Source of the DNA: Notamacropus eugenii
Lineage: Eukaryota; Chordata; Mammalia; Diprotodontia; Macropodidae
Assembly (NCBI RefSeq): GCF_028372415.1
Contig: NC_092872.1
Coordinates: forward strand, 11,135,001-11,199,000
DNA: 64,000 nucleotides
Direction of reading: 5' to 3'
Every line of letters starts with the position of its first letter. The first letter of the stretch is position 1. Shown one piece after another: positions 201 through 61,119 of the stretch. Position numbers and translations under genes: made by a program. Under the pieces are notes generated by a model, which saw only the letters and a list, made by a program, of their open reading frames with translations, was not told where the DNA came from and ran no database searches.

Positions 201-17574
<17,374 letters not shown>

Positions 17575-33054: not shown

Positions 33055-33572
33055 ACTCCCCTCTCCCCTAACCCCTAAAACATCTTCTCACTCTGTAGTA
33101 AATATTAATGGTGCATCTGAACTGTGTATATGCACAGATGGTCCCAGGAAGGGTGGGAGGAAAGCTTTAGAATAAGAGGCAGCAAGGAAAGATGGAGATT
33201 CATCAAAGAGGCCTATGATGGAAGAAATTTCCCCCTTCATGTTCTGGGGTGCGGGTGGTAAAAAGCAGTCTCAAGATTCCATGATGCTTTGAATCAGGAG
33301 ACCTAGGTTCTAATCTCATCAATGCTACTAATTCACTCAGTGAATTTTGGGCAAGAAATTCTTCTGGATCTGAATTTTTTCATGTGTAAAATGAAACCAC
33401 AGGACTAAGTGATCTCCATGGTCCATTTCAGCTCTGACATTTGGGTTTCTATAATCAAACATAAATAAGACAACCCGGTGTTAACTCTTACATCCTAATC
33501 AATCCTAGAAGAAAAAGGTCCAGGGGCTTAAAAAGGTTAGTGTGTGAGTGTTTGAAAGGACAGAGAATCAAT
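33055..33572 (+). repeat. 518-bp near-identical direct repeat, copy 1 (likely source)
   Basis: The stretch from 'actcccctctcccctaaccc' to 'aggacagagaatcaat' is present again at 36787-37304 with a constant offset of 3732 bases, so there are no net indels. I counted four base differences, all transitions. Copy 1 lies in intergenic DNA behind PRSS50 and includes an old SINE-like part (about 33290-33460). Confidence 0.95.
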
Positions 33573-34222: not shown

Positions 34223-34468
34223 TCATAGGGCCATCATGAGAGAAATAGGCAATAGCAGGGATAGGGGGGTGATCCCGGAGGAGGTCATGAGGGTGGAGGC
34301 TGCGTAGTTCAGCTCTGCTATCTCCTTTTCTATCCAGAGGGCGTACTCGCTGACCCGAGAATAGACACCTGGGGTTTCCAGATGAGCACATCCCAAGGAC
34401 CAGCTCACTACCCCCACTTGGAACCACGTGAAGTCATATTCACAGACGAGCGGGCTCCCATCATCTCC
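34223..34468 (-). CDS. PRSS50: PRSS50 exon 6 (position-195 region, C-terminus, GPI-like tail)
   Basis: The acceptor 'ctctctccacag' ends before 34468; TGA is at 34223-34225. It encodes [16 protein letters not shown], the SWSLGC segment, [18 protein letters not shown] and the hydrophobic tail. The codon at the catalytic-serine position is GAT (34460-34462). Usual SWG is SWSLGC here. Confidence 0.92.
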   Translation of the reverse strand, partial: GDDGSPLVCEYDFTWFQVGVVSWSLGCAHLETPGVYSRVSEYALWIEKEIAELNYAASTLMTSSGITPLSLLLPISLMMAL

Positions 34469-36731
34469 CTGTGGAGAGAGAAGAAGGGCAGTTATTGATG
34501 AGGGCTGGGAAGGGGAATGACTTGAGGTCCACATGGCCTTGTAACAGATGGATGTCTAGGCAGCACATGAGCCTGAGTGGGATACAGTGACTGTTTGCAT
34601 GGCTGTGCTGCATGCGACTACAATTCTGGGATGATACAGTACCGTTTGCCCTGGGCACACTGAAAGAAATCCCATGGGTTTGGGAAAAGTCAAAAAATTT
34701 GGCTACAGAAAATACTCTTTGGGAGCCTCCAGGAACAGAGAGTAGAAGTGGCTGGAGCCTGAATCCTTGCTGAAGAGACTGGAGAGAGCTGTCATGGTGT
34801 TTTGCAGTGAAGAACATGGCATTGTTGAGGAGAACAAGATTCCCAGTTCTAGGCACCATACTTCCATTCCTCTTACAGCCTCTGGATTCTGCTGGGGGCT
34901 TCTACAAGACACTATCCCCAGTTATGGGGGAAGAGATGAGAGAGCAATCTCTCCCCTCCATCCCCTGAGGTGCTCTATCAAGGGTACAAGGAAAAAAGGA
35001 CAAACTCAAGGCCTGGCTTCTTCCACTAAAACTAACTGTCTTCACTCTCTCAGAAAGGGACCAACTCTCTTTTTATCTACACCACAAAAGGCATGGTCAT
35101 TGATTGCAGTCCTGGGTCTCAGTCTCAGGGAAGGGAAGGGCACTGATACACCATACAGCCATATTGAAGCTAGAACCCTGGTCACAGTTCCAGGGTGGAA
35201 AAGAGTGCCTGTGGTCACTCACAAACCACACCACAAATCCACCTTCCTGGATCATGCCACTGTAGAAGAACAAAAAACTTACAGGTCCCCAGAATTATCT
35301 CTGAAAACAGCTGCACAACAAACCTGGAGCTGGGGATAGCACCCCCTCCCCTCCAGAAGCAGAGCCCCGTTTTAGCATAGAGTTAAAAGTCAAGAAATAG
35401 GCTGGGGGAATGACAAAGGTCCTGACTAAAGAAAGTTACCATGGTGACAGGGAAAATCCAAACACAAACTCCAAAGACAACAACCAAGTCAAAACTGCTA
35501 CATCCAAAACCTCAAAGAAAAATACGAATTATCCTCAGGCCATGGAAAAATTTTAAAAAGGATTTTAAAAATCAGGTAAGAGAGACAGAGGAAAAATTGG
35601 GAAGAGAAATGAGAGTGGGGAGCACATGAACCACTGGAATTGGCTCAAAGAGGGAATACCAGGCACATTCAGTTGGGGGTAGAAATCTGTCTTAGCACAC
35701 AGGAAAGTAGGAGGTTACGTAGGTAAGGGAGGGTTGATAGAAGGGAGGGCAGATTGGGGAAGATAAAGTCAGAAGCAAAACACTTTTGAGATTGGACAGG
35801 GTGAAAGGAGAGGAATAAGGATAGACGGGAGAGGGTAAATAAGATGGAGAGAAATATATAGCAATCATCACTGTGAAAAAATAATTTACAGCAAGTAAAA
35901 ACTTCATTTTTCAAATATATAGGAACTGAGTCAAATTTATGGAAATAAGAGCTATTCCTCAAATGATAAATCATCAAAAGATACGAACAGGTGATTTTCA
36001 GACAAATTAATGAAAGTTATCTATAGTGATATGAAAAAAATGCTCTCAATAACTACTGATTGAAGAAATGCCAATTAATGCAACTCTAAGCTACCACCCA
36101 CAACTGTTAGACTGGCTAATAGGGCAGAAAAGGAGAACAACAAATGCTGGAGGGGTTGAGGGAAAATTCAGAAATTAATGCGCTGTTGACGAAGTTCTGT
36201 ACTGATCCAACCATTCTGGAGAGCGATCTTGAACCATGTCCGAAGGGCTATGAAACCGTGCATGTCCTTTGGCCAAGCAACATCACTACTATGTCCCAAA
36301 GAGATAAAAATAAAACAAAAAGGAAAAGGACCTACATGGACAAAAATATCTATAGCAGCTGTTTTGGTGGTGGCAAAGAATTGGAAATTGAGGGGATGCC
36401 CATCAACTGGAGGATGACTGAACGAGCTGTTGTATGTGAATGTGATAAAATGCCATTTTGTGTCTAAGACATAATGAGCAAGATGCTCTCAGAAAAATCT
36501 GGAAAGACTTCTACGAATTGGTGCAAAGTGAAGTAAGCAAAACCATGATATACAGAAACAGCAATATCTTAGGATAATGAACTATGAAGAACTTAGCTAT
36601 TCTAGCAATACATGGATCCAAGACAACACTGAAGGACTTATGATGAAAAATGCTGTCCATCTCCAGAAAGAATTGCTGGTGTCTGAAAGCAAATAAAAGC
36701 ATACTTGCTCCTTTGATCTCTTTATTTTTCT

Positions 36732-36772
<41 letters not shown>

Positions 36773-39700
36773 CCTTTCACAGCATGACTCCCCTCTCCCC
36801 TAACCCCTAAAACATCTTCTCACTCTGTAGTAAATATTAATGGTGCATCTGAACTGTGTATATGCACAGATGGTCCCAGGAAGGGTGGGAGGAAAGCTTT
36901 AGAATAAGAGGCAGCAAGGAAAGATGGAGATTCATCAAAGAGGCCTATGATGGAAGAAATTTCCCCCTTCATGTTCTGGGGTGCGGGTGGTAAAAAGCAG
37001 TCTCAAGATTCCACGATGCTTTGAATCAGGAGACCTAGGTTCTAATCTCATCAATGCTACTAATTCACTCAATGAATTTTGGGCAAGAAATTCTTCTGGA
37101 TCTGAATTTTTTCATGTGTAAAATGAAACCACAGGACTAAGTGATCTCCATGGTCCATTTCAGCTCTGACATTTGGGTTTCTATAATCAAACACAAATAA
37201 GACAACCCGGTGTTAACTCTTACATCCTAATCAATCCTAGAAGAAAAAGGTCCAGGGGCTTAAAAAGGTTAGTGTGTGAGTGTCTGAAAGGACAGAGAAT
37301 CAATGAAAATACGTACACATATTTAACCTATACAAAATTGCTTGCCTTCTCAATGAGGGGGGAGGAGAGGGAGGGAGAAAATTTGGAACCCAAAATTTGA
37401 AAAAAAAAGAGAACATTAAAATTATTTTTTACATATAATTGGGGAAAAATAAAATATTAAATTTTTTAAAAAAGAAGACTGCTTGAGAGAAGTCTGTTGT
37501 TTTCACCCCTAGAGCCTAGCATAGGATTTTGTAACATACTAGGCATTTAATAAATGTTTCAAGAATGAATGAACTGAGAAATTAGCAAAGTTGCAAGAGA
37601 TGCAGATTTTGGTACAATCTGAAGGAAAACTTCTTAACAACTAAAACTGTTCAAAAGGAAAAGGAGCTAGCTGCCATGGGAGACAGTGAGTTTGTCTTCC
37701 CTACTATGTCGGACCCGTTCAAGGGAAGGGCTGGATAATGCATCTCCAGGGATTCTGTAAGGGGATTCCAGCTCAGACCTTGGATTAAACAACAACAACG
37801 GTGGAAAGTAAGAATAATAATAGTCCCTACTTCTCACAGCTGTTATGAAGATAGGCACCACATAAATGCTAGCTATTAGCTGGTGCAGCAGACTGAGCAT
37901 TAGTCCTGGAATCACTAGGACCTGAGTTCAATTCCAGACTCAGACACTAAGCAGATGTGTGATCTTAGAAAGTCTCTTCACTTCTGTTTGCCTCAGCTCT
38001 GATTATCATCAGTGGAAGCTGTAGCCATGTGATGATAACCATGGCTGTCCCCAACAATAACGGTTAGCATTTGTAGAGTATAATGCTGACCATTCATGAC
38101 AGTAATCCCATCATTTTATAGTGCCCTAAGGTTTGCCAAATGCTTCATGAACGTAATCTCATTTTATCCTTACTATAACCCTGAGTAGGAGGTGCAAACC
38201 CTCATTCTACAAATGAGGAAACTGAGGCAATCCGAGGCTAAAGTGACTTGCCCAGGGTCACATAGCTGGCTAGATTTGAACTCAGGGCTTCCTGTCTCCA
38301 GTCTCCAGAGCTCTATGTGCTGTGGGTCTCATAGATACTCTCTGAAGTTCTAGAATTCTGTTCCACAGTCTGTCTCTAGACACCTACGTTGTGTGATGTT
38401 TCTAAATCTACCCCAAGCTCCTAGGATGCCTCCCAAAGTCATTTTCGTCTCTGACAATGAGTAAGTGCCTTGAGAGATGAAGGGTGGGGGTGGGGCTGGG
38501 GAGTGGGTACCAAGGGAAGGGCAAGTTTCTTTCCATGGCTTGATCAGGCTATAAACATTCATTAAGCATCTCCTCGTACTGCACTAAGCACAAGGTCTTC
38601 CACAAAAAACTCACAGTGCAGAAGTCTTTTCCTCGGGAATAATCGCTACACAACATGTTAGAGGAGATGATACGGACGATGCTGGGCACTTCTGAGATGT
38701 CATGGTAGTGGGAGTCACAGTCGTCATTGCCCAGGATGGTGATCTCGGCTTCCTGAAGCACCGGAGAAAGCTGTGCTGTAGGGGTTTTGGGTGGGAAAGA
38801 CCTCAGTGGTTAAAGCGTCCTGTGTTCCATGATCCCCCTGCCATACCCCATAGGGTTTCCCCCACCCCATTGAGACCATCCCAAAGGCCACAAGGTAGCT
38901 AGCAGGGATGACACCACTAGTCCACCTAGCATTTAGAGCACAGACATGCTAATAACCTCCTTCAGTCACTGTAGTCAGTCTTGAAGGTTCAGGAAAGAGA
39001 GAGCCAAGATCCTAACCCTCTCTCCTGTTCTGCCACCACAGTTCTAACAGTTCTAAGTCCTCAGTTCTCATCTTCACCCCTGGTTTCCACTGGACTCTAA
39101 AAAGGAAGGGGAAGAATGTGCACTATGAAGTAGACATCTAAGACCCCATCTCCATGCTGGGTCTGTCAGTGCTTGAAGACAGCCATCCAATATAAATCTC
39201 TTCTTAGGCTATGGACGCCATACTCTATCAAGTGATCCTTAGGTGACATCATTCCCAATCTAACAAAAGCAGGCCTTTGAGGGGTAACTCATAAATTGGA
39301 GCAAATGATTCTGACTGTGAAAGGATGGGAACTGTTATATTTATCCGCTGGCATTCCAAACCTATCTCCTAAAGGGAATGAGGTAATAAGATACTTAGCT
39401 AGCCAGGGGATTGTATAGCAGTATGGGTAATTCCTTACAGGTTGGCCAGGCCTTTAGGAGGCTTTTCAATCAGTACAGAATGAGCCTGAGATTGTAGAAT
39501 GGATCAATGAACTTAGTCCAGGGAAATAAGAAACATTTTTCAATGCTAACATAAAGGGGAGAAAGAACATAGGAGCCTCACTCTGAGACAGTCCAGGGGA
39601 CTCTAGACTTCTGAAGAGCTTACTACATTTTAGGGTCTCTAGTCTGGAACCAAGCAGACTTCTCTCTAAGACTGCATGTGAGCACTAGCTTTAGAATCAG

Positions 39701-42700
39701 ACAACCTGGGTTTGAGTCTTAGCTCTGCAACCTAATATGCGTGATCTTGGAGAAGTCATTTCTTCTTCTGATTCTGTCTCTTCCTGACTCGTTAGGTGAC
39801 CTCTAAGACCTACAACTGGAACTTGATGGAATAGGACATGCTTAGCCTGAGAGGAGATTTACAGGGGTAGAGGAAGAGAGGACGGCTGTCTTCAAGCACT
39901 GAAAGACCCACCATAGAGATGGGGGATTATATATGTTATAGGGCCTAGCACAGGGTCTTGCAATATAATAGACATTTAACAAATGTTTGGGGAATAAATA
40001 AACTGAGCAATTAGCCAAGTCGCAACAGATGCAGGTTTTAGTATATACAATCTGAAGGAGATCTTCCAACTAAAGCTGTCCAAAAGGACAAGGAGCTGAC
40101 TGCCTTCCCTGTTACACTGGAGGTCTTCCAGAGAAGAGGCCTATTAATTAGTCTAATAATTAATCTTCAGGGATTCTGTAAGGGCATTATCGCTCAGTTA
40201 TACTTTGGATTAAATAATAGCAACTATGTCAAATAAGTATAATAACAGGACCTACTTCCTAGGGTTGTTAAGAAGATCATTTGTAAAGTACTGGCACAGA
40301 GGAGGCACTAGGGAAAGGACCTTCTAAGATCACTGAGAGTAGATAAGGAAACTGAGGCCCAGGTCAAAGTCACATCTTAGCACTGAAATGCAGGTAGATC
40401 CTCTCACCTCAGAGCTACCTCCTGCTCCTTTTGGCTCCTCCTTGCCCCTCTCCCTTTAACCCTAAATCATGGGTTTATCGGTTGTGATTTGAATAGGACC
40501 GAAAAAGAAAAACCCCCTAAAAACAATAATCCTCTCCATTTAAAAAAGAAAAAGTCTGATGCCTGAAATTCCATCATTAGAGAACTATTTCTTTTGTTAA
40601 GTCATGTCCTGCTCAACCTCCTCTGCTCAACCACAAATGCTCCTGAAGGAAGGAAGCTCTCTCTAGGCCCTTAGGTCTTCATGTAAACTTTCCTGGGATG
40701 GAGGAGAGAGGGACTACTAAAGGGGGAGGGAGGGCACTGGCAACTGGGATCAAAGCATGACATACATAATTTGGTTCCAGGAAACATGTTAGAGAAGGGT
40801 CTCAGGAACCAGCAGTGACCCGGGTAAAGCAGAGGGCCATGGAGAGCATACAGAGTGGAACAAAGCTGCCGTAAATCAACCTGCAGCTGACTGCGATACT
40901 ACAAACCAAAACAGGGAGGGAAGTGTGGCTGCTGGGATTTATTCAGAAAAGGTAAATACCCTTTCTGGGCAAATAGTAGACAAGCGAGGAAGTAGGTCAG
41001 AATGATTGATAATAAGTACAATTAGATTAGTCAAGAAGTAGGCAGTAGGTCATGGACTTAGACGATGGAGTGGGCACAGTGAGGGCTAAGGTGGAAAAAC
41101 CCAAGACCAGTGAAGACCCAGGCAGAAGAATAAGGCTATTCCTTCATCCCATGGGGTTATTTCCTTACGGTCTTCTCCCTCTACGGGTATTGTGGTCTGG
41201 CCCCAGCCTGTTAGCCAGCAGAAGGATCCAGCTCTCACTTCCATTGAGGGGGGGGCAATGCAGACAGGAGCGATGTATTCGGTGAATTTCACCCTCTGGG
41301 CCAGCTTGAGGAGAGCTACATTGTTCTCACGGCCTATCCACGACCAGTATCTGGTCTCCTCGTAGTTAGGGTGGATTACCACTTCTTTGACTGGTACCCG
41401 GACAGCCAGTAGAGTGTATCTTTCCTTGAGCTCTGCGGTCCCCATGTAAACAGTATAATTATCGTTGCTGTTGGAAAAAGGGAAGACGTTAACACTGTCA
41501 TTACTGCATTGAAGTAGAGGGAGTATTGGACTTTGCAGGGGTGGGGATCAGAAAACGTTGACCTTGAGTCCTGGCTACACCATTTGCTAGTTGGGAACCT
41601 TGAGTCATGGCTGTTCCACTTGTTGGCTGGGGACCTTGAGTGCTAGTTACACCATTTGCTAGCTGGGGACCTTGAGTAAGCTACTGAACCTCTTGGAACA
41701 CAGTTTACTCATCTGCAAAATAAGAGGTATTGGACTAGACCAGAGATGGGGAGCCAAGGCCATAGGTTCCTCACCCCTGGACTAGACAATTCACTCTGCA
41801 AGTTCTGTGACTTGAATGAAGGCCACAGCACCATGGCTTCTGAGAATGAGGTATGGGGGTGGGATTTCAGAGTCACAGAATCTTAAACACCAGGAATTTT
41901 CTTGACAGCTGCCCCGGTATGTGGTCATCCAAACTATTTTGAACACCATCAGTAACAGAGAGATCACTCTGAATCCAGACAGTGCCAATGTTGTAGAGTA
42001 TTGATTATTAGAAAACTCTTCCTTTTATTGAGTCAAAATCTGTTTCCTTTTATTTTCCAACCACCACATTTGTTTATGACCACTGGCATCAAGTAGAATC
42101 AAGATTCAGAATTTGTTGAAAATGCTCATCTTCAAAGTAGTGAATTCCACCAACTCAGAGGGAGGTAAAGTCACAGGAATCTGCCTCTGGCTTTATGCTG
42201 TTCCATGTGTTTGACAATGCACTGGGGTAAAGGCATAGATGTCAGATTTCTGACATAGAATCAGAGAATCTCAGAGCTGGAAGGGACCTCAGAGGCATGA
42301 ACTCAATCTGGGGGCAGTGAGGTGGCACAGTAGATAGAGCACTGACCCTAGAGTCAGGAGGTCCTGAGTTCAAATCCACTCTCAGACACTTACTAGCTGT
42401 GTGACCCTGGGCAAGTCACTTAACCCCAACTGCCTCAAAAACAAAATTCAACCTGGACCTGAACAGAAGCTCTCTCTATAACCTAACCCTGTTAATAATC
42501 ACCTAACCTCTGTTCTAAGAACTCAACTTCTATACACCGCTCCTAGGATAAAGGAGAACAAATCTAATCTCATTTTCATTACAGTCTCTCAAGTATTTGG
42601 AGATGACCATGGTGAGTCCCTTCCCCTATGATGCCCCCCAAGTTTTCATTAAGATAAATATTCCCATTTTTTTAGCCAATCCTCATATGAAATAACCTCA

Positions 42701-45700
42701 GGACTTTGTCCACCTTGGTCCTCTTCTGGATGCCAAGCTTGGCAATATCTTCCCTAAAATGTGGCCCCCAGAACTGAACATAATAATCCAGATGTGGTCT
42801 GAGCAGGGCAAAGGGGCAACAGAGCCCTCCCCTCTCTAGTCTGATACACTATGCTTCTCAGAGCAAATTTAAGATCGCGTTGGCATTTGGGATTGCCTTA
42901 TCATTGTTGTTTCATATTAAACTTGCAAATATCTTTTTTTTTTAATTGAGGAAGAAATTAAGGTCCAGGGAAGGTGTCATTTAAATCCAGGTTGTCTGAT
43001 TCCAAATATAACATTTTCCTCATTGTACTCCTCTTGAAGCATTTTGTTTGGTCCTCGGTGCCACATTGTAGGAAGGAAAAATACAAGAGAGGTTTAACAG
43101 GATGATGTACAGACTACCGATCACGTCACCTGAGGATCTGTCCAGTGAACCAGAGGTGCTTATAGACTGAAGACGCAGAGAAGGACATAACATAATCTTC
43201 AAAAAATTTCAAGAATTAGTTTCGAATGGCTTCGAGGATTTACCTTTATCAGCCTGGCTGTGAATGGGTGGAGTGGAAAAGGAGGGCACACAAGGAAGGG
43301 CAACTGAGGGGTAGATTTTGGCTTAGTACATGTGTCTCCCACGTTTAGAATGCCCTCTCCCCTTCCTCACTGCTGTTTCCTGGCTTTCCTGGTTTCCTTT
43401 AGGATGCAGCAGAAGGCCTTTCTGGAGCCCACTCCTCCCCCCTCAGCTGCTAGTGCCCTCCACTCTCCAATCACCTCTCATCTACTAGGAAAAGATCCTG
43501 TATGTGCTTGGCTACTAACATAGGGTTTCCCCCATTCGGATGTTAGCTCCTTGGGGGGGCTGAGTCATGTTTTATTTATTCCTCCGCTCACTTATTCATT
43601 CATCTATCGACTCATTCATTTATTCATTCAGTCATTTTTTTATGAATTTATTCTTGCCCTTTGCTTCTCTGGTGCTTACTTAGCACAGGGTCTGGCACAC
43701 AGGAGTTGGCTGGCTTAAGCTACAGTCTTAATCCTGATCTAAAAGTTAGAGTTGTCAAAAAAGTAGACAGACTGACTTGTGAGAGGTAGGGTTGTTTTTT
43801 TAATTTCTCATTTGAGCAGGTGCTAGATGACCATGGGCTGGAGATGTCATAGGGATTTTAAAGTCTTTTCTACTGAGAATCTGTGATTCTAAATTGTTTG
43901 AAAGTCAAGTTGGAACCTCTCAAATGATCCTTTTAACTAGAATGAACAAACCCCCTGCAACTGTATTGCTAAAAGTCCATGCCACCTCCTCTGCCTGTAG
44001 CCTGACTTCTCCCTACCCCTGCCAGAAGTATGACACAGCACTCACTCTGACCTTTCCAGAATCTTACCCATTTTTCAGGTCACCTTTCTTTCACCCAAGC
44101 TCCTCCCCCAGCTATCCTGTTAGAGAGGAAAATCGCCTTGGACTTGGAATCAAAGGATTTTCCTAACAACAATATAAAATGGTAGCACAAACGATATTTA
44201 TCCAGACCTACTGCCTGCCTGATTGGCTCACTAAGGACCTTGAAAATGGTTCAACTCACGGATTCAAGCAATTAGCAGCCGTCAGCACCCAGAGGGGGGC
44301 AACTAGGGACCCGCCGCACAGGTGATTGCCGTTTTTCTGAACGCTCACTTGCCACGGCCATTTCCTGTCCATCGCTTCTTCTCCACCTATGACTTTTTCG
44401 AAGAAATATGTATGACCACAGCCTGAAGAGGGAGAGTGAGAGAGCAAGGGTGAGAGAGATAGAGGTGGTAAAAGAAGAGACAGAGAGACACACAGAGAGA
44501 TGAAAAAGAGTTGAGACAGAGATGAGAGAGAACTGAGAGGGAGAGAGGGAAAGAGAAAGAGAGAAGGAAGGAGGGGAGACTGAGAGATAAGAGGGGGGGA
44601 GAGGTGAAAGAGATGAGAGTGAGAGATGGACAGACAGACAGATATGTGAGGGGACCTAGAATCTTGGCTCATCAGACTTCCATTGAAGCCTTAAGTCCTA
44701 TTTAATAGTTACCACTTAAAGAAACAGCCATTTTATAAAGACTGTGAAAATAAAACAGTCCTGGATTTGAGATCAAATGACTTAGGTTTGAATCCTGGGT
44801 GTGACCCAGCAAATCTTCTAACCTCTCTGAGCCCCAACTTGCCCATCTGCAAAATGATGATTTCAGTCCTACCTACGTCATAGACTTCCTAAGTCCACAG
44901 GTAGTGGACATGGGAGACATCAGTACTGTTGCTGATCTCCTTAGCTCTGGGTAGTGACCGCTGGGGATCACCACTCCATGGTGGATCTCAGGAAGCCCCC
45001 TTTGATTGTCCATACTAACAAACAGGGGTAGTGATGTGAGGGGAACCCAGATAGCATGTGGCTGGACTTGAGGCTAGTCAGTTTCTGTTTCCATTTTGTG
45101 AAACCATTCAGTTGAATTTTATTCACCAAGTAGCTAGGAGATGTGGTGCATAGAACATTTGAAATCCTGCCTGAGACACTTCCTGTGTAATTCTGGGCAA
45201 ATCATGTAACTTCTCTCAGATTCCCTTTCCTCAAGCGTAAAATGAGGATAGTAATATTACCTGTCTCTCAGGTTTGTTGTGGGAATCAGGTAACTAGTTA
45301 AAATTCTTCACAAACCTTGTAGCGCTATAAAAATGTTGTTCAGTTGTTTCAGTCACATCTGATTCTGTCCATGGGGTTTCCTTGGCAAAGATGATGGAGT
45401 AGTTTGCCATTTCCTTCCCCAGTGGTAAACAGAGGCTAAGTGACTTGTCCAAGGTCACACAACTAGAAAGTTTCTGAGACTGGATTTTAACTTAGGTCCG
45501 TTGACTCCAAGACCAGCACCCTCTCCACAGCGCCACCTAGCTGTTATTATCAACAAACATTTATTACATTTGAATAAAAGGATTGGGGAAAGAGACCTTA
45601 CTTGCAGCCAAATGATCTAAAGTTTAAATGTCTGTTCTGCCCCTTAATACCCATGTGACCTTGAGCAATCGCTGAACCTCTCTGTTCCTCAGTTTCCTCA

Positions 45701-48700
45701 CCTGTAAAACAAGGCAACTGAACTAGATGAACACTAAGGTCGCTTCTGGCTTTCTCTGAGCCTGTACAGTCATGTGATGTGTTCTGTAAATGTCCCTTGA
45801 GCCAAATTAAGACATTACTCTACGAAGACTTATAGTGTTCTGTATTCACCTGCCTGACTTGAAGTCAACTCCTTTATACCACGTATTTTATGCTGGATAA
45901 AAGGTCTTACCACTGACTCCCACTATGTGGCCATGGGAAAATGATTTTTTAACCTTTCCAGGTCCCTATTTCCTTATCTGCATAATGACAGAGTTGGCCT
46001 AGGTGATCTCCCAGGAACTCCTTTCCTTTCCTCTTTCAGGATTATAGTGGAAGCACCTTTGATCCTAAAGACAGGACCTAGCTCCATGTGGGTATCTCCT
46101 CATTAGGACCAAGATATATATTGGATGAAACTACTTTGTACCATAACGGACTGAGGGAGATCAGAGGTAGACATAGCAGAGAAGGGAATGTCAGGAAAGG
46201 GGAAGGACCCGCATGGAGGTAGAAGGGAAGAACAGTTTCTCCTCACAGATAAGACATTCCCTAAGGTCCAAGACTTTGTCTACTCCATTGGGGGATCCCC
46301 ACAGGCTTGTGGATGGACACTGTCTCCAGGAAGGTCACTATGTTCTTTCTACTAATTTGCAGATTCTTCTGTATGAGTTCAGGCCTTGAAGAAAATGAAT
46401 ATCTAACCATGGATTTAAGGCCTGCAATCAGCTGGATGAGCTGATCTTAAAGTGAGCAGTGACTGTCATTAAAAAGTCTTTTCTCATGTTGAATGTACAT
46501 ATCTTGCTCCCTCATAAAGTCCCTGGGAGAGCTGAGATTTGGCAGGGGTGGGTCAGTTTTAAATTAAAATATTATGATCATGGGATCATACTATGTCAGA
46601 GCTGGAAGGTATCTTAGAACATAACATGTCATAAGGGGGAGTTTAGAACTTAGAATGTTAGTTATAACCCTAACCCTAGCTATGGCTAGGAAGGAACTTA
46701 GAACATAGAATGTCAGATGAGGGAAGGAAGTTAGATCACAGAACATCAGAGGTAGGAGGGAACTTAGAACACAGAATATCAGATGTAGGAAGGAATTTAG
46801 AACACAATGTCAGGTGGGAGGGAACTTAGAACACATGATGGGGAAAAAATTTTTACAACTAGCATGTGTGCTAAAGGCCTCATTTCTAAAATATAGAGAA
46901 AACTGAGTCAAATTTATAAGAATACAAGTCATTCCCCGGTTGATAAATGGTCAACTGATATGAACAAGCAGTTTTCAGAGGAAGAAATTAAAGCTATCTA
47001 GAGTCATATGAAAAATTGCTCTAAATCACTATTGATTAGAGAGATGCAAATCAAAACAGCTCTGAAATACCACATCACACCTATCAGATTGGCTAACATG
47101 ACAAAATAGGAAGATGATAAATGTTGGAGAAGATGTGGAAGAGCTGGAACACGAATTCATTGTAGGTGGAACTGTGAGCTGATCCAACCATTCTGGAGAG
47201 CAATTTGGAACTGTGCCCAAAGGGCTACAAAAATATGCGTACCCTTTGACCCAGCAATAGCTCTTCTAGGACTGTATCCCCAAGAGATCATATAAATGGG
47301 AAAGGTCCCACATGTACAAGGTAGTCAAAAACTGGAAATTGAGGGGATGCCCATCCATTGGGGAATGGCTGAACAAGTTGTAGTACATGAATGTAATGGA
47401 ATACTACTGTGCTGTGAGAAATGATGAACAGGAAGACTTCAGAGAAGCCTGGAAAGACTTATATGAACTGAGGCTGAGTGAAAGGAGCGGAAGCAGGAGA
47501 ACTCTGTACACAGCAACAACCACAGTGAGCGAGGACTGTTTCTGATAGACTTAGCCCTTCACAGCAAGGCAAGGACGGAAAACATTCCCAAAGGACTCAT
47601 GATGCTACATGCCATCCACATCCAGAGAAAGGACCATGGGGTCAGAACACAGAATGGAGCAGACTGTCTTCTCTGCTGTTATGTCTGGCTTGGTTTTTCT
47701 CATGGTTTCTCTCATTTGTTTTAATTCTTCTATATAACATGACTAATATGAAAATGTGTTTAATAAGAATGCATGTAGAGAGCCCACGTAAGACTGTGTG
47801 CCATCTTGGGGGAGAGGGAAAGAGTGGGAGAAAATTTAAAACTGATGGAAGCGATTGTTAAAAATTGAAAGCAAATAAACTAACAAGTGGTGGAGGAAAA
47901 GGCAAAAAGCAAAAGAAAATGTGTAATAAAGTTTAGGTATAAAGGGGAAAAAACACAGGATGTCAGAACTGAAAGGACCCTTAGAACCTGGGATGTCAGA
48001 GCTGGGAGGGTCCTTAGAACCCAGGATGTCAGAGCTGGGAGGGTCCTTAGAACATGCTGGGAGGGTCCTTAGAACGTGCTGGGAGGGTCCTTAGAACATG
48101 CTGGGAGGGTCCTTAGAACCCAGGATGTCAGAGCTGGGAAGGTCCTTAGAACATGCTGGGAGGGTCCTTAGAACCCAGGATGTCAGAGCTGGGAGGGTCC
48201 TTAGAACATGCTGGGAGGGTCCTTAGAACCCAGGATGTCAGAGCTGGGAAGGTCCTTAGAACATGCTGGGAGGGTCCTTAGAACGTGCTGGGAGGGTCCT
48301 TAGAACATGCTGGGAGGGGTCTTAGAACGTGCTGGGAGGGTCCTTAGAACATGCTGGGAGGGTCCTTAGAACCCAGGATGTCAGAGCTGGGAGGGTCCTT
48401 AGAACCCAGGATGTCAGAGCTGGGAAGGTCCTTAGAACATGCTGGGAGGGTCCTTAGAACGTGCTGGGAGGGTCTTTAGAACGTGCTGGGAGGGTCCTGA
48501 GAACGTGCTGGGAGGGTCCTTAGAATGTGCTGGGAGGGGTCTTAGAACATGCTGGGAGGGTCCTTAGGACGTGCTGGGAGGGTCCTTAGAACATGCTGGG
48601 AGGGTCCTTAGAATGTGCTGGGAGGGGTCTTAGAACATGCTGGGAGGGTCCTTAGAACGTGCTGGGAGGGGTCTTAGAACATGCTGGGAGGGTCCTTAGA

Positions 48701-49349
48701 ACGTGCTGGGAGGGGTCTTAGAACATGCTGGGAGGGTCCTTAGAACGTGCTGGGAGGGGTCTTAGAACATGCTGGGAGGGTCCTGAGAACGTGCTGGGAG
48801 GGTACTTAGAACGTGCTGGGAGGGTACTTAGAACATGCTGGGAGGGTCCTTAGAACATGCTGGGAGGGTCCTTAGAACGTGCTGGGAGGGTCCTGAGAAC
48901 GTGCTGGGAGGGTCCTTAGAACGTGCTGGGAGGGTCCTGAGAACCCGCCAGGTCAGAGGTGGGCGGTGCTGGAGGCATCCCCACGCAAAGAGAGGGGGTC
49001 TGGGGCGGGGCAGGAGGGGGGGGCTGGGTGGGGGTGGTGAAGGCGGGAGGGGGCGGGGTGAGCCACGCCCCCGAGCTGGGTCCCTCCCCCTCCTCCTCCC
49101 CTTCCCCCTCCCCCTCCCTCAGACATTACTCACCTTTCTCATCCTGCTGGGTGGGCTGCTCCTCAGCAATGCCCCCTGTGGAGAGAGCACAGGATGGGGT
49201 GGGGGACCCTAGTTAGGGGGCCCAAGGGGCAGGCCCTTCCCCGCCCCTCTACCACCTCCGGGCCGGGCCTCACCCATGGCCTGCAGCAGTAGCGTCAGGA
49301 GGAGCTGGGAGCCCAGGGGAGCCCTGGGCGGGTGGGCGGGGCCCAACAT
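34223..49349 (-). CDS. PRSS50: PRSS50 (TSP50) orthologue, complete, all three triad residues replaced
   Basis: Six exons on the minus strand join in frame to 328 codons: 49274-49349, 49134-49175, 44260-44422, 41169-41467, 38615-38775 and 34223-34468, all with AG/GT borders. The protein has a signal peptide (LLLTLLLQA), a short linker, a zymogen-like [10 protein letters not shown] site (Lys49/Val50), a trypsin-like domain, and a hydrophobic tail ([15 protein letters not shown]) of GPI-signal type; human TSP50 is GPI-anchored and testis-restricted. [17 protein letters not shown] and [18 protein letters not shown] resemble human PRSS50 closely, and the position next to convergent TMIE is syntenic. 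The triad is lost: TAANC (Asn90 for His57), NNVALL (Asn143 for Asp102) and GDDGSPL (Asp250 for Ser195). Human PRSS50, as remembered, keeps His and Asp and has Thr at 195. Asp189 is retained. A pseudoprotease role is inferred. Confidence 0.88.
34900..36786 (+). mobile_element. Internally deleted L1: 5' UTR and ORF1 start joined to 3' region
   Basis: About 34900-35440 resembles marsupial L1 5' UTR ('ctctgaaaacagctgcacaa', 'gttaaaagtcaagaaatagg'). About 35400-35625 resembles the ORF1 N-terminus: a frame reads [21 protein letters not shown], compare KKDFENQVREVEEKLGREKR in the HAL1 ORF1 of this window. From about 35635 the text is L1 3'-region ('ctggctaatagggcagaaaa', 'gatccaaccattctggagag', 'gaggggatgcccatcaactg'), so most of ORF1 and ORF2 is missing. 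Its 3' UTR is interrupted at 36787 and resumes at 37305-37478. It lies in PRSS50 intron 5. The left border is approximate. Confidence 0.7.
36735..36771 (+). repeat. (GT)n microsatellite in L1 3' UTR
   Basis: About 18 GT units after 'tttatttttcttgttt'. Confidence 0.95.
36787..37304 (+). repeat. 518-bp near-identical direct repeat, copy 2, inserted in an L1 3' UTR
   Basis: The L1 3' UTR is read up to 'cacagcatgact' and resumes after the insert at 'aatgaaaatacg'. The other L1 in this window has the uninterrupted version 'catgactaatatgaaaatg' at about 47739-47757. The insert therefore lies between those bases, with about 3 bases (act, aat) shared at each junction. Copy 1 is at 33055-33572. Confidence 0.9.
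37305..37478 (+). mobile_element. L1 3' UTR end (continuation after the insert)
   Basis: It reads 'acctatacaaaattgcttgc', 'cttctcaatgagggg' and an A/T-rich end 'gggaaaaataaaatattaaa', the usual marsupial L1 3' terminus. Confidence 0.75.
37490..37870 (+). repeat. Old duplicated segment, copy A (L2 tail + CR1-like + SINE part)
   Basis: The order L2 tail ('actaggcatttaataaatgt'), 'gcaagagatgcagattttgg', 'ctaaaactgttcaaaaggaa', 'cttggattaaacaacaacaa' and 'ctgttatgaagat' recurs in the same order at 39920-40310, at clearly lower identity than the 518-bp pair. Confidence 0.55.
37875..38310. repeat. Two SINE/MIR copies, one in each orientation
   Basis: A forward MAR1-like copy lies at 37875-38010 ('ggacctgagttcaattccag'). 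A reverse MIR-type copy lies at 38090-38310 ('gtgacttgcccagggtcaca', 'gatttgaactcagggcttcc'). Confidence 0.7.
38615..38775 (-). CDS. PRSS50: PRSS50 exon 5
   Basis: The acceptor 'caaaacccctacag' precedes 38775 and the donor gtgagt follows 38615. It encodes [36 protein letters not shown] and [18 protein letters not shown]. Asp in KDFC aligns with S1-pocket Asp189 of trypsin. Phase 0 at the 3' end joins GDDGSPL of exon 6. Confidence 0.92.
38776..41168 (-). other. PRSS50 intron 4, no exon seen
   Basis: Apart from the old duplicated segment at 39920-40310 and a MIR-like piece at 40320-40400, nothing assignable is seen. Confidence 0.5.
39920..40310 (+). repeat. Old duplicated segment, copy B
   Basis: It contains 'agacatttaacaaatgtttg', 'gcaacagatgcaggttttag', 'ctaaagctgtccaaaaggac', 'ctttggattaaataatagca' and 'gggttgttaagaagatc', collinear with 37490-37870. 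Confidence 0.55.
41169..41467 (-). CDS. PRSS50: PRSS50 exon 4 (position-102 region)
   Basis: The acceptor 'ccctttttccaacag' precedes 41467 and the donor gtaagg follows 41169. It encodes [69 protein letters not shown] and FCWLTGWGQ. The codon at the catalytic-aspartate position is AAT, Asn (41320-41322). Confidence 0.92.
41850..42080 (-). repeat. CR1/L3-like fragment
   Basis: It reads 'catcagtaacagagagatca' and 'ggaaaactcttccttttatt'-like text ('tagaaaactcttccttttat'), related to 7755-8100. Confidence 0.4.
42306..42450 (+). repeat. MAR1-type SINE, the best preserved copy in the window
   Basis: The sequence from 'gggggcagtgaggtggcaca' through 'gagttcaaatccactctcag' to 'tgtgaccctgggcaagtcac' and 'cctcaaaaacaaaa' is almost consensus-like. 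It is inserted in CR1-like DNA. Confidence 0.9.
42480..42900 (-). repeat. CR1/L3-like LINE fragment
   Basis: The + strand reads 'caatcctcatatgaaataac', 'cccagaactgaacataataa' and 'tccagatgtggtctgagcag', antisense of the CR1-type RT C-terminal region. Confidence 0.6.
43330..43715 (+). repeat. L2 3' region
   Basis: It contains 'gaatgccctctccccttcct', 'gctagtgccctccactctcc', 'gatgttagctccttgggggg' and 'cacagggtctggcacacagg', with an attcattcatt run inside. Confidence 0.7.
44260..44422 (-). CDS. PRSS50: PRSS50 exon 3 (activation site and position-57 region)
   Basis: The acceptor 'ctctccctcttcag' precedes 44422 and the donor gtgagt follows 44260. It encodes [37 protein letters not shown] and [16 protein letters not shown]. 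The codon at the catalytic-histidine position is AAT, Asn (44271-44273). Confidence 0.93.
44430..44645 (+). repeat. GA-rich low-complexity tract directly upstream of PRSS50 exon 3
   Basis: Gagaga/gagaca units on the + strand. On the gene strand this is a roughly 215-base CT-rich extension of the exon 3 polypyrimidine tract. Confidence 0.9.
44646..46589 (-). other. PRSS50 intron 2, left part
   Basis: Apart from the SINE at 45325-45545 and MIR-like cores near 44790-44880, 45150-45300 and 45640-45760, no feature is seen. Confidence 0.5.
45325..45545 (-). repeat. Marsupial SINE, reverse orientation
   Basis: The + strand reads 'gttgtttcagtcacatctga', 'gacttgtccaaggtcacaca' and ends 'ccctctccacagcgccacct'. 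Same family as 29935-30182. Confidence 0.8.
46590..46840 (+). repeat. 33-bp-type minisatellite, left part, degenerate
   Basis: Repeating 'gggaacttagaacacagaatatcagat' motifs in roughly 32-36-base units. It is continued on the other side of the L1 by the long array at 47955-48950. Confidence 0.75.
46850..47943 (+). mobile_element. 5'-truncated L1 3' end inserted in the minisatellite
   Basis: It starts in the L1 3' region ('ttttacaactagcatgtgtg'), continues through 'gatccaaccattctggagag', 'ggggaatggctgaacaagtt' and 'gatgaacaggaagacttcag', and ends with A-rich sequence. The 10-mer GGGGAAAAAA at 46840-46849 recurs at 47944-47953 and may be the target-site duplication. No intact frame remains. 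Confidence 0.75.
47955..48950 (+). repeat. 33/22-bp minisatellite, about 1 kb
   Basis: The array starts with 33-base units ('gggagggtccttagaaccca' plus 'ggatgtcagagct') and passes to 22-base units ('gggagggtccttagaacatgct' class, variants acgtgct and gggtctt) that are 11 bases shorter. More than 35 units in all, in PRSS50 intron 2 just behind exon 2. Confidence 0.95.
49005..49075 (+). other. G-rich tract able to form G-quadruplex
   Basis: At least six runs of three or more G occur within 70 bases ('gggggggctgggtgggggtg', 'ggcgggagggggcggggtg'), on the template strand of PRSS50 (intron 2, next to exon 2). Confidence 0.6.
49134..49175 (-). CDS. PRSS50: PRSS50 exon 2 (42 nt linker exon)
   Basis: The acceptor 'gtgctctctccacag' precedes 49175 and the donor gtgagt follows 49134. 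With the flanking split codons it encodes [15 protein letters not shown]. Phases 1-1 match exons 1 and 3. Human PRSS50 has a much longer linker here. Confidence 0.85.
49274..49349 (-). CDS. PRSS50: PRSS50 exon 1 (start codon and signal peptide)
   Basis: ATG at 49347-49349 opens [15 protein letters not shown] followed by [10 protein letters not shown], a short n-region and hydrophobic core of a signal peptide. The donor is gtgagg at 49273. I chose it because phase, donor and signal peptide fit exon 2 and the family's exon 1 structure. Confidence 0.8.
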
Positions 49350-49401: not shown

Positions 49402-50042
49402 CGGACTCCGAGAGCCTCCCCGCGGAGCCCCCTGGTGGGCGCGCTCGGTAATGGCCTCCCCGCGGAGCACCCTGGTAGAGGCTCTCGGTAACAGCCTCCC
49501 CGCGGAGCCCCCTACTGGGCGCGCTAGGTAACAGCCTCCCTGCGGAGCCCCCTACTGGGCACCCTCAGTAACGGCCTCCCTGCGGAGCCCCCTACTGGGC
49601 ACGCTCGGTAACGGTCCTCCCCGCGGAGCACCCTGGTAGAGGCTCTCGGTAACAGCCTCCCTGCGGAGCCCCCTACTGGGCGCGCTGGGTAACAGCCTCC
49701 CTGCGGAGCCCCCTACTGGGCACGCTCGGTAACGGTCCTCCCCGCGGAGCACCCTGGTAGAGGCTCTCGGTAACAGCCTCCCTGCGGAGCCCCCTACTGG
49801 GCACGCTCGGTAACGGTCCTCCCCGCGGAGCACCCTGGTAGAGGCTCTCGGTAACAGCCTCCCCGCGGAGCCCCCTACTGGGCGCGCTGGGTAACAGCCT
49901 CCCTGCGGAGCCCCCTACTGGGCACGCTCGGTAACGGTCCTCCCCGCGGAGCACCCTGGTAGAGGCTCTCGGTAACAGCCTCCCTGCGGAGCCCCCTACT
50001 GGGCGCGCTCGGTAACAGCCTCCCCGCGGAGCCCCCTGGTGC
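49402..50042. repeat. 40-bp GC-rich tandem array, 16 units, directly upstream of PRSS50
   Basis: Units have the form 'ggtaacagcctccctgcgga' + 'gccccctactgggcgcgctc'. I count 16. A 41-base variant with 'gcaccctggtagaggctctc' appears five times, spaced two or three units apart, giving a higher-order pattern. It begins about 50 bases upstream of the start codon. Long minus-strand frames through it are repeat artefacts. Confidence 0.95.
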
Positions 50043-50601: not shown

Positions 50602-51275
50602 CAGTGGTAGTAGTGGTGGTGGTAGTAGTAACTGGTAGTAGCAGTGGTAGTAGTGGTGCTGGTAGTAGTAGTGGTGGTGGTGGTAGCAATGGTAGTAGTG
50701 GTAGTGGTAGTAGTGGTGGTGGTAGTAGTAGTAGTGGTGGTGGGAGTAGTGGTGGTGGTAGTGGTAGTGGTGGTAGTAGTAGTGATAGTGGCCGTAGTAG
50801 TAGTAGTAACTGGTAATAGTGGTGGTAGCAATGGTACTAGTGGTAGTGGTAGTGGTAGTAGTAGTGGTGGTGGTAGTAGTGGTGATAGTGGCCGTAGTAG
50901 TAGTAGTAGTGGTAGTAGTAGTAACTGGTAATAGTGGTGGTAGCAATGGTACTAGTGGTAGTGGTAGTGGTAGTAGTAGTGGTGGTGGTAGTAGTGGTGA
51001 TAGTGGCCGTAGTAGTAGTAGTAGTGGTAGTAGTAGTAACTGGTAGTAGTGGTGGTAGCAATGGTAGTAGTGGTAGTGGTAGTAATAGTAGTGATAGTGG
51101 TAGTAGTAGTAGTGGTGGTAATAGTAGTAGTAGTAGTAAGTAGTAGTAGTAGTAAGTAGTAGTAGTGGTAGTAGTGGTGGGAGTAGTAGTAGTAGTAGTA
51201 GTGGCAGTAGTAGAGTGGCAGTAGTAGTGATAGTGGTAGTAACAGTAATACTAGCAGTAGTAGTGATAGTAGTAG
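50602..51275. repeat. (GTA/GTG)n trinucleotide tract with 115-bp higher-order units
   Basis: Imperfect gtagtggtg repeats for about 670 bases. The marker 'aactggta' recurs at about 50630, 50808, 50923 and 51038, the last three exactly 115 apart, together with 'gatagtggccgtagtagtag'. The long frames here (poly-Val, Ser/Gly, or Tyr/His/Thr) are not genes. Confidence 0.95.
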
Positions 51276-51389
51276 TATGGGTGGAGATGTGGAAAGAGTT
51301 CTCCCAGGCGTGGGGCATGGTCTGCACAAGGGAGGAAACAAGCGTGTACCGACTGTCTGCTGTGTTCCAGGTGCTGTGCTAAGCGCTTT

Positions 51390-54091: not shown

Positions 54092-54226
54092 TCACTTCGA
54101 GAACTTGCTGACACGGACATAAACAGTTGGCACCTCAGCTTGGGTACAAGTTTTCACCCAACTCATCACCCCTACCAGCATCCAGGTCTTCTTGGCTTCA
54201 CACACAAGGGACCCTCCATGATTACC
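54092..54226 (-). CDS. PRSS45: PRSS45-like exon 6 (position-195 region, ends at TGA in place of Trp)
   Basis: The acceptor 'ctctttttcccaag' precedes 54226. It encodes [32 protein letters not shown] and [12 protein letters not shown], then TGA (54092-54094). The codon aligned with Ser195 is CAT (54218-54220) and that aligned with Asp194 is AAT. Confidence 0.78.
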   Translation of the reverse strand, partial: GNHGGSLVCEAKKTWMLVGVMSWVKTCTQAEVPTVYVRVSKFSK

Positions 54227-57200
54227 CTTGGGAAAAAGAGAAGAATTAACCACAGGGATCTCAGGGTTGGGGATTCCAGGCCAGCTGGACCCTAGATTCA
54301 GAACAATAGGGTTGAGGGTGGCATAGGGAGGAATACACTACTCTGTCCCCAGGAGTCTCATGGAAATCATCGTGGAGGGGCTTTTGGGGAGGGAAAGCAG
54401 ACACCAATGGACCACAGCATCCCCATTAGGGCCAGGGTAATTAGAAGATGGGGGCTCCACAAGAAGGAATGGTTAGGAGACTCTGGGCTTGGAGGAGTAC
54501 TCTCATTTGTCTGTTTCTGGAGTTATCCAAACAAGGCAGCATATAGCTGCTGAAGGGACTAAGGACCTTGGAGGTCCTCTAGGACAATCCTTTCATTGTA
54601 TATTCAAGAGAACCCTGGCATCAAACACTGACAGGTCACCCAAGTAAATGGCAGAGATGAGATCTGAATGAGAAGATCAGGGATTCAAAGATGGGAGGAA
54701 CCGTAGAGGTCATCCAGCCCAACCAAAGTTGAGAACCAGAGAGGTTATCGACTTACTCAAGGTCAACACAGAAAACCAATGACAGAGCCAATACTGGAAC
54801 CCAAGTCTTCTTCCTCCAAAATCACCACTTTCCACTGTAGCTCAGCTGAGTAGAGTCATGTATCATCAGAAAAAATCCTATCTAGGGCAATGGATATGAA
54901 CCGAAAGATAGAATCTGAGGGATGAAGGATCATTTAGGACACTCCTAACTGATAAAGAACCTAATTACCTCCTAAGGCAGCTCATCCCATCACTGGGTAA
55001 GTCTATTATGACATTGTTATATGTTGACCTAAAGGTCTTAATTCTGCACTCCAGAGCTAAGCAAAATGAATGTAAGACATCTTCCACATGGGAGGCCTTC
55101 AAATATTTCAAGACAATAATTATGTTCCTTCCCAAGTCTTCTCTTCTTGAAGCTAAATAAATGTCCCTATTTCCTTCATTCGTTCCTAATTTTTCAGGGC
55201 GTCATTTTCCTCCTCAACAGCCTGGTTCCTTTCTTTCTGGATTTTCTCTAGCTGATCAGTCTTCATTTTAAAAATGGTCTGAACGGAGTAAAGGACAATG
55301 GGACCGTCACTGCCCTTTGCTGAACCCTGGCTTCCTATTAATACACTCTAAGATCACATGAGCATTTTTAGTTTTCATATCACATCATTGACCTGCATCA
55401 TGCTTGCAGACCACAAGGACTCCCAAGATCGTTTTCTCTTTTCCCAGACACAACTACTTGTGCTGTTAATTTATTGAACCCAAATATAGGACTTTACGCT
55501 ATCTTTTGACTATTATGCTACTTGTTAGCTGTCTCTCCCAGCTCTGTTACCTTCAAGGTTGATGAGCATGACATTTGTGACATAAACCAAGTCTTTGATA
55601 AAATTATTGAAGAAAATTGCACCAGGGAGAAAATTCTGGCTTCTCTTGTGTTTGATGTCCATGCATTACTTGCTACTCTTTGGATCCTTCCATTCAAACA
55701 GTTCTAAATCCATTTAACTATAGCATTCATCCAGCCCTCCTTTCTCCATCTTGACCACAAAAACAACTTTCTCAAGAGGTGCTGGAGAATGCCCTGCAGT
55801 CCAGCTGTATTCTAATATGCACAATCTAATAATTTAGAGATCAGAGTGGAAAAGGAAATGAATGAAGCTAGTCTGGCAGAATTTTTTCTTAATCAACCCA
55901 TACTAGGTCCTAGGGATTACCACTTCCATTTCTAAATGTTCAAAAGCCACTCATTGGATAATGCCTTCTCTAATTGTTTTATTGTCCATATCATGTCTAA
56001 GGAAGCCATGAGACTTGGGCCTCTGACCTCTGACTTCAGAAGACACAGAGAACTCACCTGGCATAAAGTTCCATTTTTTTGGCCTATAACGCAAACCACA
56101 GATCCTACGATGAAAGGGATATATCGGGGTGAAGGGGGAATAATATGGTAAAGCTGGTCACACCTCTTGTGGTTAACGATGAATACTTTTGTCTCCTGGA
56201 GCTCTGAGGATAATGGCTGATCTGCCTTGGGAAAACAGGTTAGTGGCCAGAAGTTGAACACTTTCCTCTTCCCCCTATCGCCCTTCAGGGACTCCTTTGC
56301 ATTCACTCCTTCATTAAGGAAATATTGATGACCTTCCACCACAAACCCCATATGTTCTTAGAGGCCCTATGGCACTCAGTCACACCTGGGTAATTCTAGA
56401 CTGGACACAGAGCACACAAAGACAGACCATGGAGTTGAACGCGATGAGTACAGACCTAACAAATTACATTTATATACACATCAATCTGAAGAGGAAAAAA
56501 ATGCATTTCTTTAGGTTTCAAACACTGTGTGACAAATATAATGCAAAAATAAAGAACTTTTGAAAAGTTCAAAACACATTTATGGAGCAGCTACATAGGT
56601 ACTGCTTGATAAATTCTTGTGGATTGCGTGGCATAATGGGAAAACTCTTTCCCATTTCCTGACCCTCCCCCCCTTCCAAGAAGGTCAGGCAAATTGAGCT
56701 CCAGACAAGACCCAGCACCAACTAGTTATAGGAGCTTGGACAAATTATCGCCTCTCTCTGGGCCTCAGTTTCCCCACATGTAAAATGAGGGGATTAACTG
56801 ATTCAATGATTTCTAGGCGAGTTCCAACCTGTAGTATCTGTGTTCTATGATATTGTACTGACCTGAAGGGGAAAGAGGAAACTAAGCAGGGACTGATGAT
56901 ACGAGAAGGGATGTTTGACTGAGAATGCTTCCAAAGGACTTTCCCACTTTGGAGTTAGAGAAGGTCCAAGGGGAAGAAAATGGCTGAATTCCTTTCGCTT
57001 GGCTATGTACAATTGTACAATGATTTTCTTTCCTTCTCTACCCTCTCGAGGGAGGTGGTGTGGGAGGGAGAGGAAATAGATTTTTAGCTAGTTATTTAAA
57101 ATAAAATAGAACTTTGTAAAGGAACTAAGCATTGTTTAGTTGTAAACCAAAATGAGACTTGGGAAAAGATAAAGGCAAAGAATGCTTGCTGCCTTTTGGC

Positions 57201-61045: not shown

Positions 61046-61119
<74 letters not shown>

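What the first reader, a model, noticed from the sequence alone, without database searches (positions are those of the whole stretch)
34460..44273. PRSS50 with all three catalytic triad residues replaced but an otherwise intact gene
Seen: the six-exon frame is open with good splice sites, yet His57 is Asn (44271-44273), Asp102 is Asn (41320-41322) and Ser195 is Asp (34460-34462). Known: human PRSS50/TSP50 keeps His and Asp and uses Thr at 195, and is regarded as a threonine-type enzyme. Inference: in this marsupial lineage PRSS50 has become a non-enzymatic, probably GPI-anchored protein, or is early in decay. Three triad changes without any frame break favour maintained non-catalytic function.
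Basis: partly seen in the sequence, partly recalled or inferred. Interest (0 to 1): 0.85.

Follow-up and report, generated by a model that had tools for sequence, protein, structure and literature searches.

The report
Wallaby sperm-protease gene turned non-enzyme
A wallaby gene that looks like a testis protein-cutting enzyme has lost all three residues needed for cutting yet stays intact, and its relatives suggest that this protein has been losing the cutting machinery by different routes in marsupials and in placental mammals.

Summary
In detail: a minus-strand gene of six exons (49349 to 34223), 328 open codons, consensus splice sites, and Asn, Asn, Asp at positions 57, 102 and 195. It is the tammar wallaby PRSS50 orthologue, next to TMIE, with no second copy found. 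The state is no assembly error: Asp195 is in 9 of 10 marsupial species (bilby: Tyr). His57 and Asp102 are lost together in 6 of 9 species and kept together in opossum, wombat and koala, so the nucleophile went first. Fold, cysteines, activation site, Asp194 and a hydrophobic C-terminal tail are kept; invariant columns (90 of 253) are about twice the neutral expectation. Best reading: a maintained, probably membrane-anchored pseudoprotease.

Unexpected: placental PRSS50 looks damaged by the opposite route. Ser or Thr stays at 195, but Gly193, Asp194 and the activation site are gone, and 102 is Asn in 46 of 85 species (at least 13 changes). The "threonine protease" label needs a new test. Against that, His57 and a hydroxyl at 195 are conserved in placentals, and activity has been reported for human TSP50. 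Not available here: dN/dS, expression data, assays.

The parts
49274..49349 (-). PRSS50 exon 1: start codon and signal-peptide-like N-terminus ([26 protein letters not shown])
   Evidence: Read, joined; resembles the Dromiciops N-terminus MLGPARTPGAPLGSLPLLLMLL. RefSeq P0001 uses the repeat upstream instead.
49134..49175 (-). PRSS50 exon 2 (phase 1 to phase 1)
   Evidence: the same residues ([13 protein letters not shown]) are in P0001
44260..44422 (-). PRSS50 exon 3: activation site and position 57
44391..44396 (-). Lys15-Val16 codons (AAA GTC): predicted zymogen-activation cleavage site K|VIGG
   Evidence: read; basic residue followed by V/I in 8 of 9 marsupial rows
44271..44273 (-). Codon 57, AAT = Asn (canonical His)
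41169..41467 (-). PRSS50 exon 4: position 102 and the PRSS50-type WSWIG loop
   Evidence: loop shared with placental PRSS50
41320..41322 (-). Codon 102, AAT = Asn (canonical Asp)
38615..38775 (-). PRSS50 exon 5
34223..34468 (-). PRSS50 exon 6: position 195, C-terminal hydrophobic tail and stop
34463..34465 (-). Codon 194, GAT = Asp, kept (partner of the new N-terminus in canonical zymogen activation)
34460..34462 (-). Codon 195, GAT = Asp (canonical Ser nucleophile)
34226..34273 (-). Last 16 residues, hydrophobic, ending at the stop: GPI-signal-like tail
   Evidence: mean Kyte-Doolittle 1.99 in tammar, 1.56 to 2.98 in the 15 rows tested; GPI attachment itself not tested

Best explanation
This is the tammar wallaby orthologue of PRSS50 (TSP50). 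It is kept as a secretory-pathway, probably GPI-anchored pseudoprotease: a folded chymotrypsin-like domain that binds partners but cannot cut. Shown here: an intact six-exon gene, orthology, no second copy found, Asn/Asn/Asp at the triad, and Asp195 in 9 of 10 marsupial species sampled. Inferred in order: the nucleophile was lost in the marsupial stem (Ser to Asp needs at least two base changes), after which His57 and Asp102 had no catalytic duty and were lost together in later lineages. Inferred mechanism: marsupial PRSS50 keeps a basic residue before V/I16 and keeps Asp194, so cleavage by another protease could still insert the new N-terminus and reshape the old active-site face. That would be a proteolytic switch controlling binding rather than catalysis, as in HGF and MSP. 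By analogy with mouse Prss50 knockout data the function probably lies in sperm-tail and centrosome formation.
Against: No expression data, no dN/dS and no biochemistry. The protein evolves fast: tammar-opossum 61% against 84% for prostasin, so much of it is loosely constrained. Absence of stops in the other marsupial rows is ascertainment, since they are database proteins and broken copies would be missing; the wombat entry is itself named LOW QUALITY PROTEIN. The neutral simulation covers only the protease-domain columns and its mutation model is my choice. The bilby row has Tyr195 and an altered activation site, which looks further degraded. The adjacent PRSS45-like gene has a premature stop, so protease genes do decay at this locus. 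The switch idea is untested; wombat and koala have Gly and the glider Asn at 189.
Confidence: 0.75

Rival explanations
1. Early decay: PRSS50 is dispensable in marsupials and drifts; the open frame is only not yet broken.
For: Fast evolution, degraded bilby copy, LOW QUALITY wombat entry, stop in the neighbouring PRSS45-like gene.
Against: Excess invariant columns, 90 of 253 against 17-22% expected under neutrality at matched identity, and an open tammar frame where 95-97% of neutral rows would carry a stop; GDDGSPL motif shared by 9 of 10 species.
Confidence: 0.13
2. Hidden paralogy: an ancient marsupial duplication left a His/Asp copy in opossum, wombat and koala and an Asn/Asn copy in the others.
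For: Holding the three His/Asp species together is not rejected (p-AU 0.191, log-likelihood 6.8 lower).
Against: Diprotodontia as one clade fits as well or better (p-AU 0.687, log-likelihood 2.4 higher). One PRSS50-like locus among the scored candidates in tammar and one per species in the listed protein hits, apart from a truncated koala isoform (hits clustered at 90% identity). Both groups share Asp195, so neither would be an active copy.
Confidence: 0.06
3. Position 195 is used as a charge or phosphate site rather than as a nucleophile: in placentals a Ser/Thr-Gly-Glu motif (Ser-x-Glu, the recalled pattern of the secretory kinase FAM20C) can be phosphorylated, and the marsupial Asp imitates the phosphorylated state.
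For: Of 114 rows searched by motif (P0121-P0234), the 195 motif was found in 93, and all 93 have Ser or Thr at 195 and Glu at 197; marsupials have Asp at 195.
Against: The kinase motif is recalled, Thr is a poor fit to it, bilby has Tyr, and an active-site residue may be inaccessible. No phosphorylation data seen.
Confidence: 0.04
4. Assembly or sequencing error at the three codons.
For: The window and the tammar protein entry may share one assembly, so their match is not independent.
Against: The same residues occur in 5 (position 57, Asn) and 6 (position 102, Asn) of 9 and in 9 (position 195, Asp) of 10 marsupial species, tammar included.
Confidence: 0.01

Closest known systems
PRSS50 / TSP50 of placental mammals ('probable threonine protease')
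   Same: One orthologous clade, same place beside TMIE (human order recalled), WSW[IV]G loop, hydrophobic C-terminal tail
   Different: Placentals keep His57 (82 of 85) and Ser/Thr195 (84 of 84 readable) but have Glu at 193 (83 of 84), Asp at 194 in 0 of 84 and no R/K-V/I activation site in the alignment; marsupials keep these three features and lose the nucleophile
Serine pseudoproteases PRSS23 and PRSS35 (PMC13194640, passages)
   Same: S1 folds without detectable (PRSS23) or expected (PRSS35) catalysis; both lack the Ile16-Asp194 switch, as placental PRSS50 does
   Different: Marsupial PRSS50 has the reverse combination: switch kept, triad lost
HGF and MSP (named in PMC13194640, passages; further details recalled)
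   Same: Cleavage-activated pseudoproteases: a zymogen-like precursor gains biological activity on cleavage
   Different: Multi-domain receptor ligands; PRSS50 has one protease domain and a probable GPI tail, and no receptor is known to me
PRSS37 and other sperm pseudoproteases (PMC9114714, passages)
   Same: Inactive protease folds needed for male fertility
   Different: Not claimed to be orthologous; PRSS37 was not compared here
PRSS45-like gene next door
   Same: Adjacent paralogue, nucleophile also lost (His in tammar, Pro in opossum)
   Different: Keeps His57 and Asp102, lost the activation motif, and in tammar carries a premature stop

Membership tests
PRSS50 orthologue | Falls in the PRSS50 clade of a tree with other trypsin-like proteases | tested here: met
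   34 PRSS50 rows one clade, 100/98, triad columns dropped
PRSS50 orthologue | Position next to TMIE, with PRSS45 on the other side | tested here: met
   TMIE exons by tblastn with a recalled human sequence; PRSS45-like exons; the human gene order is recalled, not tested
Chymotrypsin fold (S1A) | Pfam Trypsin match and chymotrypsin-like structure | tested here: met
Active S1 serine (or threonine) protease | His57, Asp102, Ser/Thr195 | tested here: not met
   Asn, Asn, Asp
S1 zymogen with activation switch | Basic residue 15 followed by V/I16, and Asp194 | tested here: met
   K|VIGG and Asp194 in tammar; site pattern in 8 of 9 and Asp194 in 10 of 10 marsupial rows; cleavage itself not tested
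GPI-anchored protein | N-terminal signal and hydrophobic C-terminal tail without cytoplasmic part | tested here: inconclusive
   Sequence pattern present; no predictor and no experiment
Serine pseudoprotease (maintained) | No catalytic triad but purifying selection on the fold | tested here: met
   Protein level only: 90 of 253 invariant columns against 17-22% in neutral simulation; dN/dS not available
Serine pseudoprotease (maintained) | Absence of hydrolase activity in an assay | not testable with these tools
   needs a recombinant protein
Pseudogene | Frame breaks or lost splice sites | tested here: not met

The most novel reading that the evidence does not exclude
PRSS50 stopped being selected as a protease in both therian lineages and broke by complementary routes. 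Marsupials lost the nucleophile and later the His/Asp pair while keeping the activation switch, so that cleavage still works as a conformational switch. Placentals kept a Ser/Thr at 195 and His57 but dismantled the oxyanion hole and the switch, with Asp102 flipping to Asn again and again. 'Threonine protease' would then be a misnomer for the whole family, whose fertility role rests on binding.
Probability: 0.45. Interest if true: 0.75.

Novelty: new variant of a known kind. Interest (0 to 1): 0.6.

Why it matters
PRSS50/TSP50 is described in print as a testis protein, up-regulated in breast cancer, that works as a threonine protease (PMC3344824, passages), and as a gene needed for the mouse sperm tail (PMC11506864, passages). 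A mammalian clade in which the gene is kept with no usable active site, and a second in which residue 102 is Asn in about half the species, is a natural experiment: whatever PRSS50 does in all mammals is unlikely to need classical catalysis. It makes directly testable whether the T310A effect reported for human TSP50 reflects lost binding rather than lost cutting. In the passages I saw, that paper attributes the effect at least partly to lost interaction with the NF-kappaB:IkappaB-alpha complex.

Tried and rejected
Rejected: assembly error (shared by independent species); misplaced exon boundaries creating the odd codons (phases and splice sites agree); identity as PRSS45 (databases name P0002, P0003 and P0007 'putative serine protease 45', but they group with PRSS50 and the opossum PRSS45 row P0023 does not); second copy in the tammar genome (none among the scored candidates).

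Led nowhere: a search for monotreme PRSS50 with a marsupial profile listed none in its best 120 of 154 hits; only the 7991 candidates sharing most words were scored, and placental PRSS50 was not listed there either, so absence is not shown. No marsupial DNA other than the tammar's was at hand, so dN/dS was not computed; one search is a protein-level substitute. The primary paper on the mouse knockout is not held. Searches for PRSS50 with 'marsupial' and with 'pseudoprotease' returned no papers; this covers only the held open-licence library, and of the 84 papers that hold PRSS50 I saw 30 in a listing and passages of one (PMC11506864). A search for TSP50 with evolution, ortholog and catalytic (at least three of four terms) listed nothing on point in 10 of 31,458.

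Rows dropped: of 114 rows P0121-P0234, 85 were kept as one row per species; duplicates, fragments and unnamed rows were dropped. In one search, 29 of the 114 rows missed at least one of two motifs. The koala isoform P0016 (truncated) was left out of counts; P0013 (dunnart, partial) counts for 194 and 195 only and was not in the trees.

Full report
Observation. On the minus strand of the window a six-exon gene runs from 49349 to 34223. Exons 3-6 carry the protease domain with consensus acceptors and donors and matching phases, and codons 57, 102 and 195 read AAT, AAT and GAT. Exons 1 and 2 lie at 49274-49349 and 49134-49175. The joined coding sequence is 987 nt with one terminal stop. The protein is a trypsin-family domain and is identical over 92% of its length to P0001, named probable threonine protease PRSS50 of Notamacropus eugenii. 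P0001 has a different N-terminus that reads the GC-rich tandem repeat at 49413-50037. Exon 1 proposed here instead gives a signal-like start resembling that of Dromiciops. The window is C1:11135001-11199000 of its assembly.

Identity. A 54-row tree built without the triad columns puts 9 marsupial and 25 placental PRSS50 rows in one clade (100/98), with the placentals at 100/100 and the marsupials at 94/75. TMIE exons lie on the plus strand at 2849-3091 and 13121-13291, and a PRSS45-like gene follows on the other side; the human order is recalled. A search of the own genome with wombat PRSS50 finds the four window exons (79, 55, 69 and 47% identity) and nothing else above 53% among the listed matches (only the best candidates are scored). 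PRSS50 therefore appears to be single-copy.

Marsupial comparison. Position 195 is Asp in 9 of 10 species (tammar, monito del monte, brushtail possum, Tasmanian devil, wombat, opossum, koala, glider, and dunnart as a partial row) and Tyr in bilby. Position 57 is Asn in 5, Ser in 1 and His in 3 of 9; position 102 is Asn in 6 and Asp in 3 of 9. The His and Asp species are the same three: opossum, wombat and koala. On a recalled species tree the 102 pattern needs two changes if regain is allowed and three if not; position 57 needs three and four. Nucleophile loss is thus read as the oldest event. Gene-tree tests reject neither Diprotodontia as a clade nor a His/Asp clade (p-AU 0.687 and 0.191).

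Background. Of 259 other trypsin-like domains aligned, 234 have all three positions; 212 are His/Asp/Ser, 3 have all three replaced and 2 have Asp195. The sample is hits of my own queries, not a random one. A PRSS42-like gene 33-40 kb past the window end (L019) keeps His, Asp and Ser, so loss is not a property of the region.

Placental comparison. In 85 placental species position 57 is His in 82, and 102 is Asn in 46 and Asp in 39. Among 84 with readable residues, 193 is Glu in 83, 194 is Asp in none, and 195 is Ser in 51 and Thr in 33. On a species tree typed from recall 102 needs at least 13 changes and 195 at least 7. A motif check without an alignment agrees: 102 is Asn in 54 and Asp in 49 of 103 rows found, out of 114 searched. 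No R/K-V/I activation motif appears among the 12 commonest contexts printed in the alignment (most often EQDPTLRDP, 27 of 114; 20 of 114 rows are gaps there). [quoted passage not shown] Results against a family-wide loss: His57 and a hydroxyl at 195 are conserved in placentals. PMC3344824 (passages) calls T310A of human TSP50 protease-dead, citing an earlier paper that I have not seen; its own reported effect includes lost interaction with the NF-kappaB:IkappaB-alpha complex. In its main text 'casein' and 'zymogr' occur 0 times.

Mechanism. The best reading is a membrane-anchored binding protein with a cleavable switch and no catalysis. Steps shown: sequence, orthology, distribution of the changes; the fold is predicted. 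Steps inferred: order of loss, GPI anchoring, cleavage at Lys15, binding as output, a sperm role from mouse data (PMC11506864 passages). Reproductive pseudoproteases are known (PMC9114714 passages). I rate non-catalytic maintenance at about 0.75 and the switch itself at about 0.35.

Novelty. Searches for PRSS50 with 'marsupial' and with 'pseudoprotease' returned no papers in the held library. The protein is a new variant of a known kind, the serine pseudoproteases. What is unexpected is the opposite pattern of loss in the two therian lineages.

Noticed in passing
window 54092-61444, minus strand: PRSS45-like gene: exons 61285-61444, 60008-60282, 56058-56221 and from 54226; codon 195 is CAT (His, 54218-54220); an in-frame TGA at 54092-54094 cuts off the C-terminal tail while the sequence after it still reads like the opossum protein.
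   Followed up: partly
window 49413-50037: GC-rich tandem repeat (40/121/202-bp periods) just upstream of PRSS50 exon 1; the RefSeq model P0001 reads it as an apparently false N-terminus in place of the signal peptide.
   Followed up: partly
window 48034-48944 and 50603-51277: 22-bp minisatellite of roughly 32-41 units in intron 2, and a long AGT-type trinucleotide array upstream of the gene.
   Followed up: no
window 2849-3091 and 13121-13291, plus strand: TMIE coding exons (recalled human query).
   Followed up: partly
L019:2485-9464, minus strand: PRSS42-like gene 33-40 kb beyond the window with an intact His/Asp/Ser triad.
   Followed up: partly
window 33088-33480 and 36820-37212: Two near-identical repeat copies, seen as matching ORF translations, on either side of the last PRSS50 exon.
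   Followed up: no
protein entries P0002, P0003, P0007, P0013: Database names disagree: marsupial PRSS50 genes are labelled putative serine protease 45 or serine protease 30-like (P0013 by identity only).
   Followed up: yes
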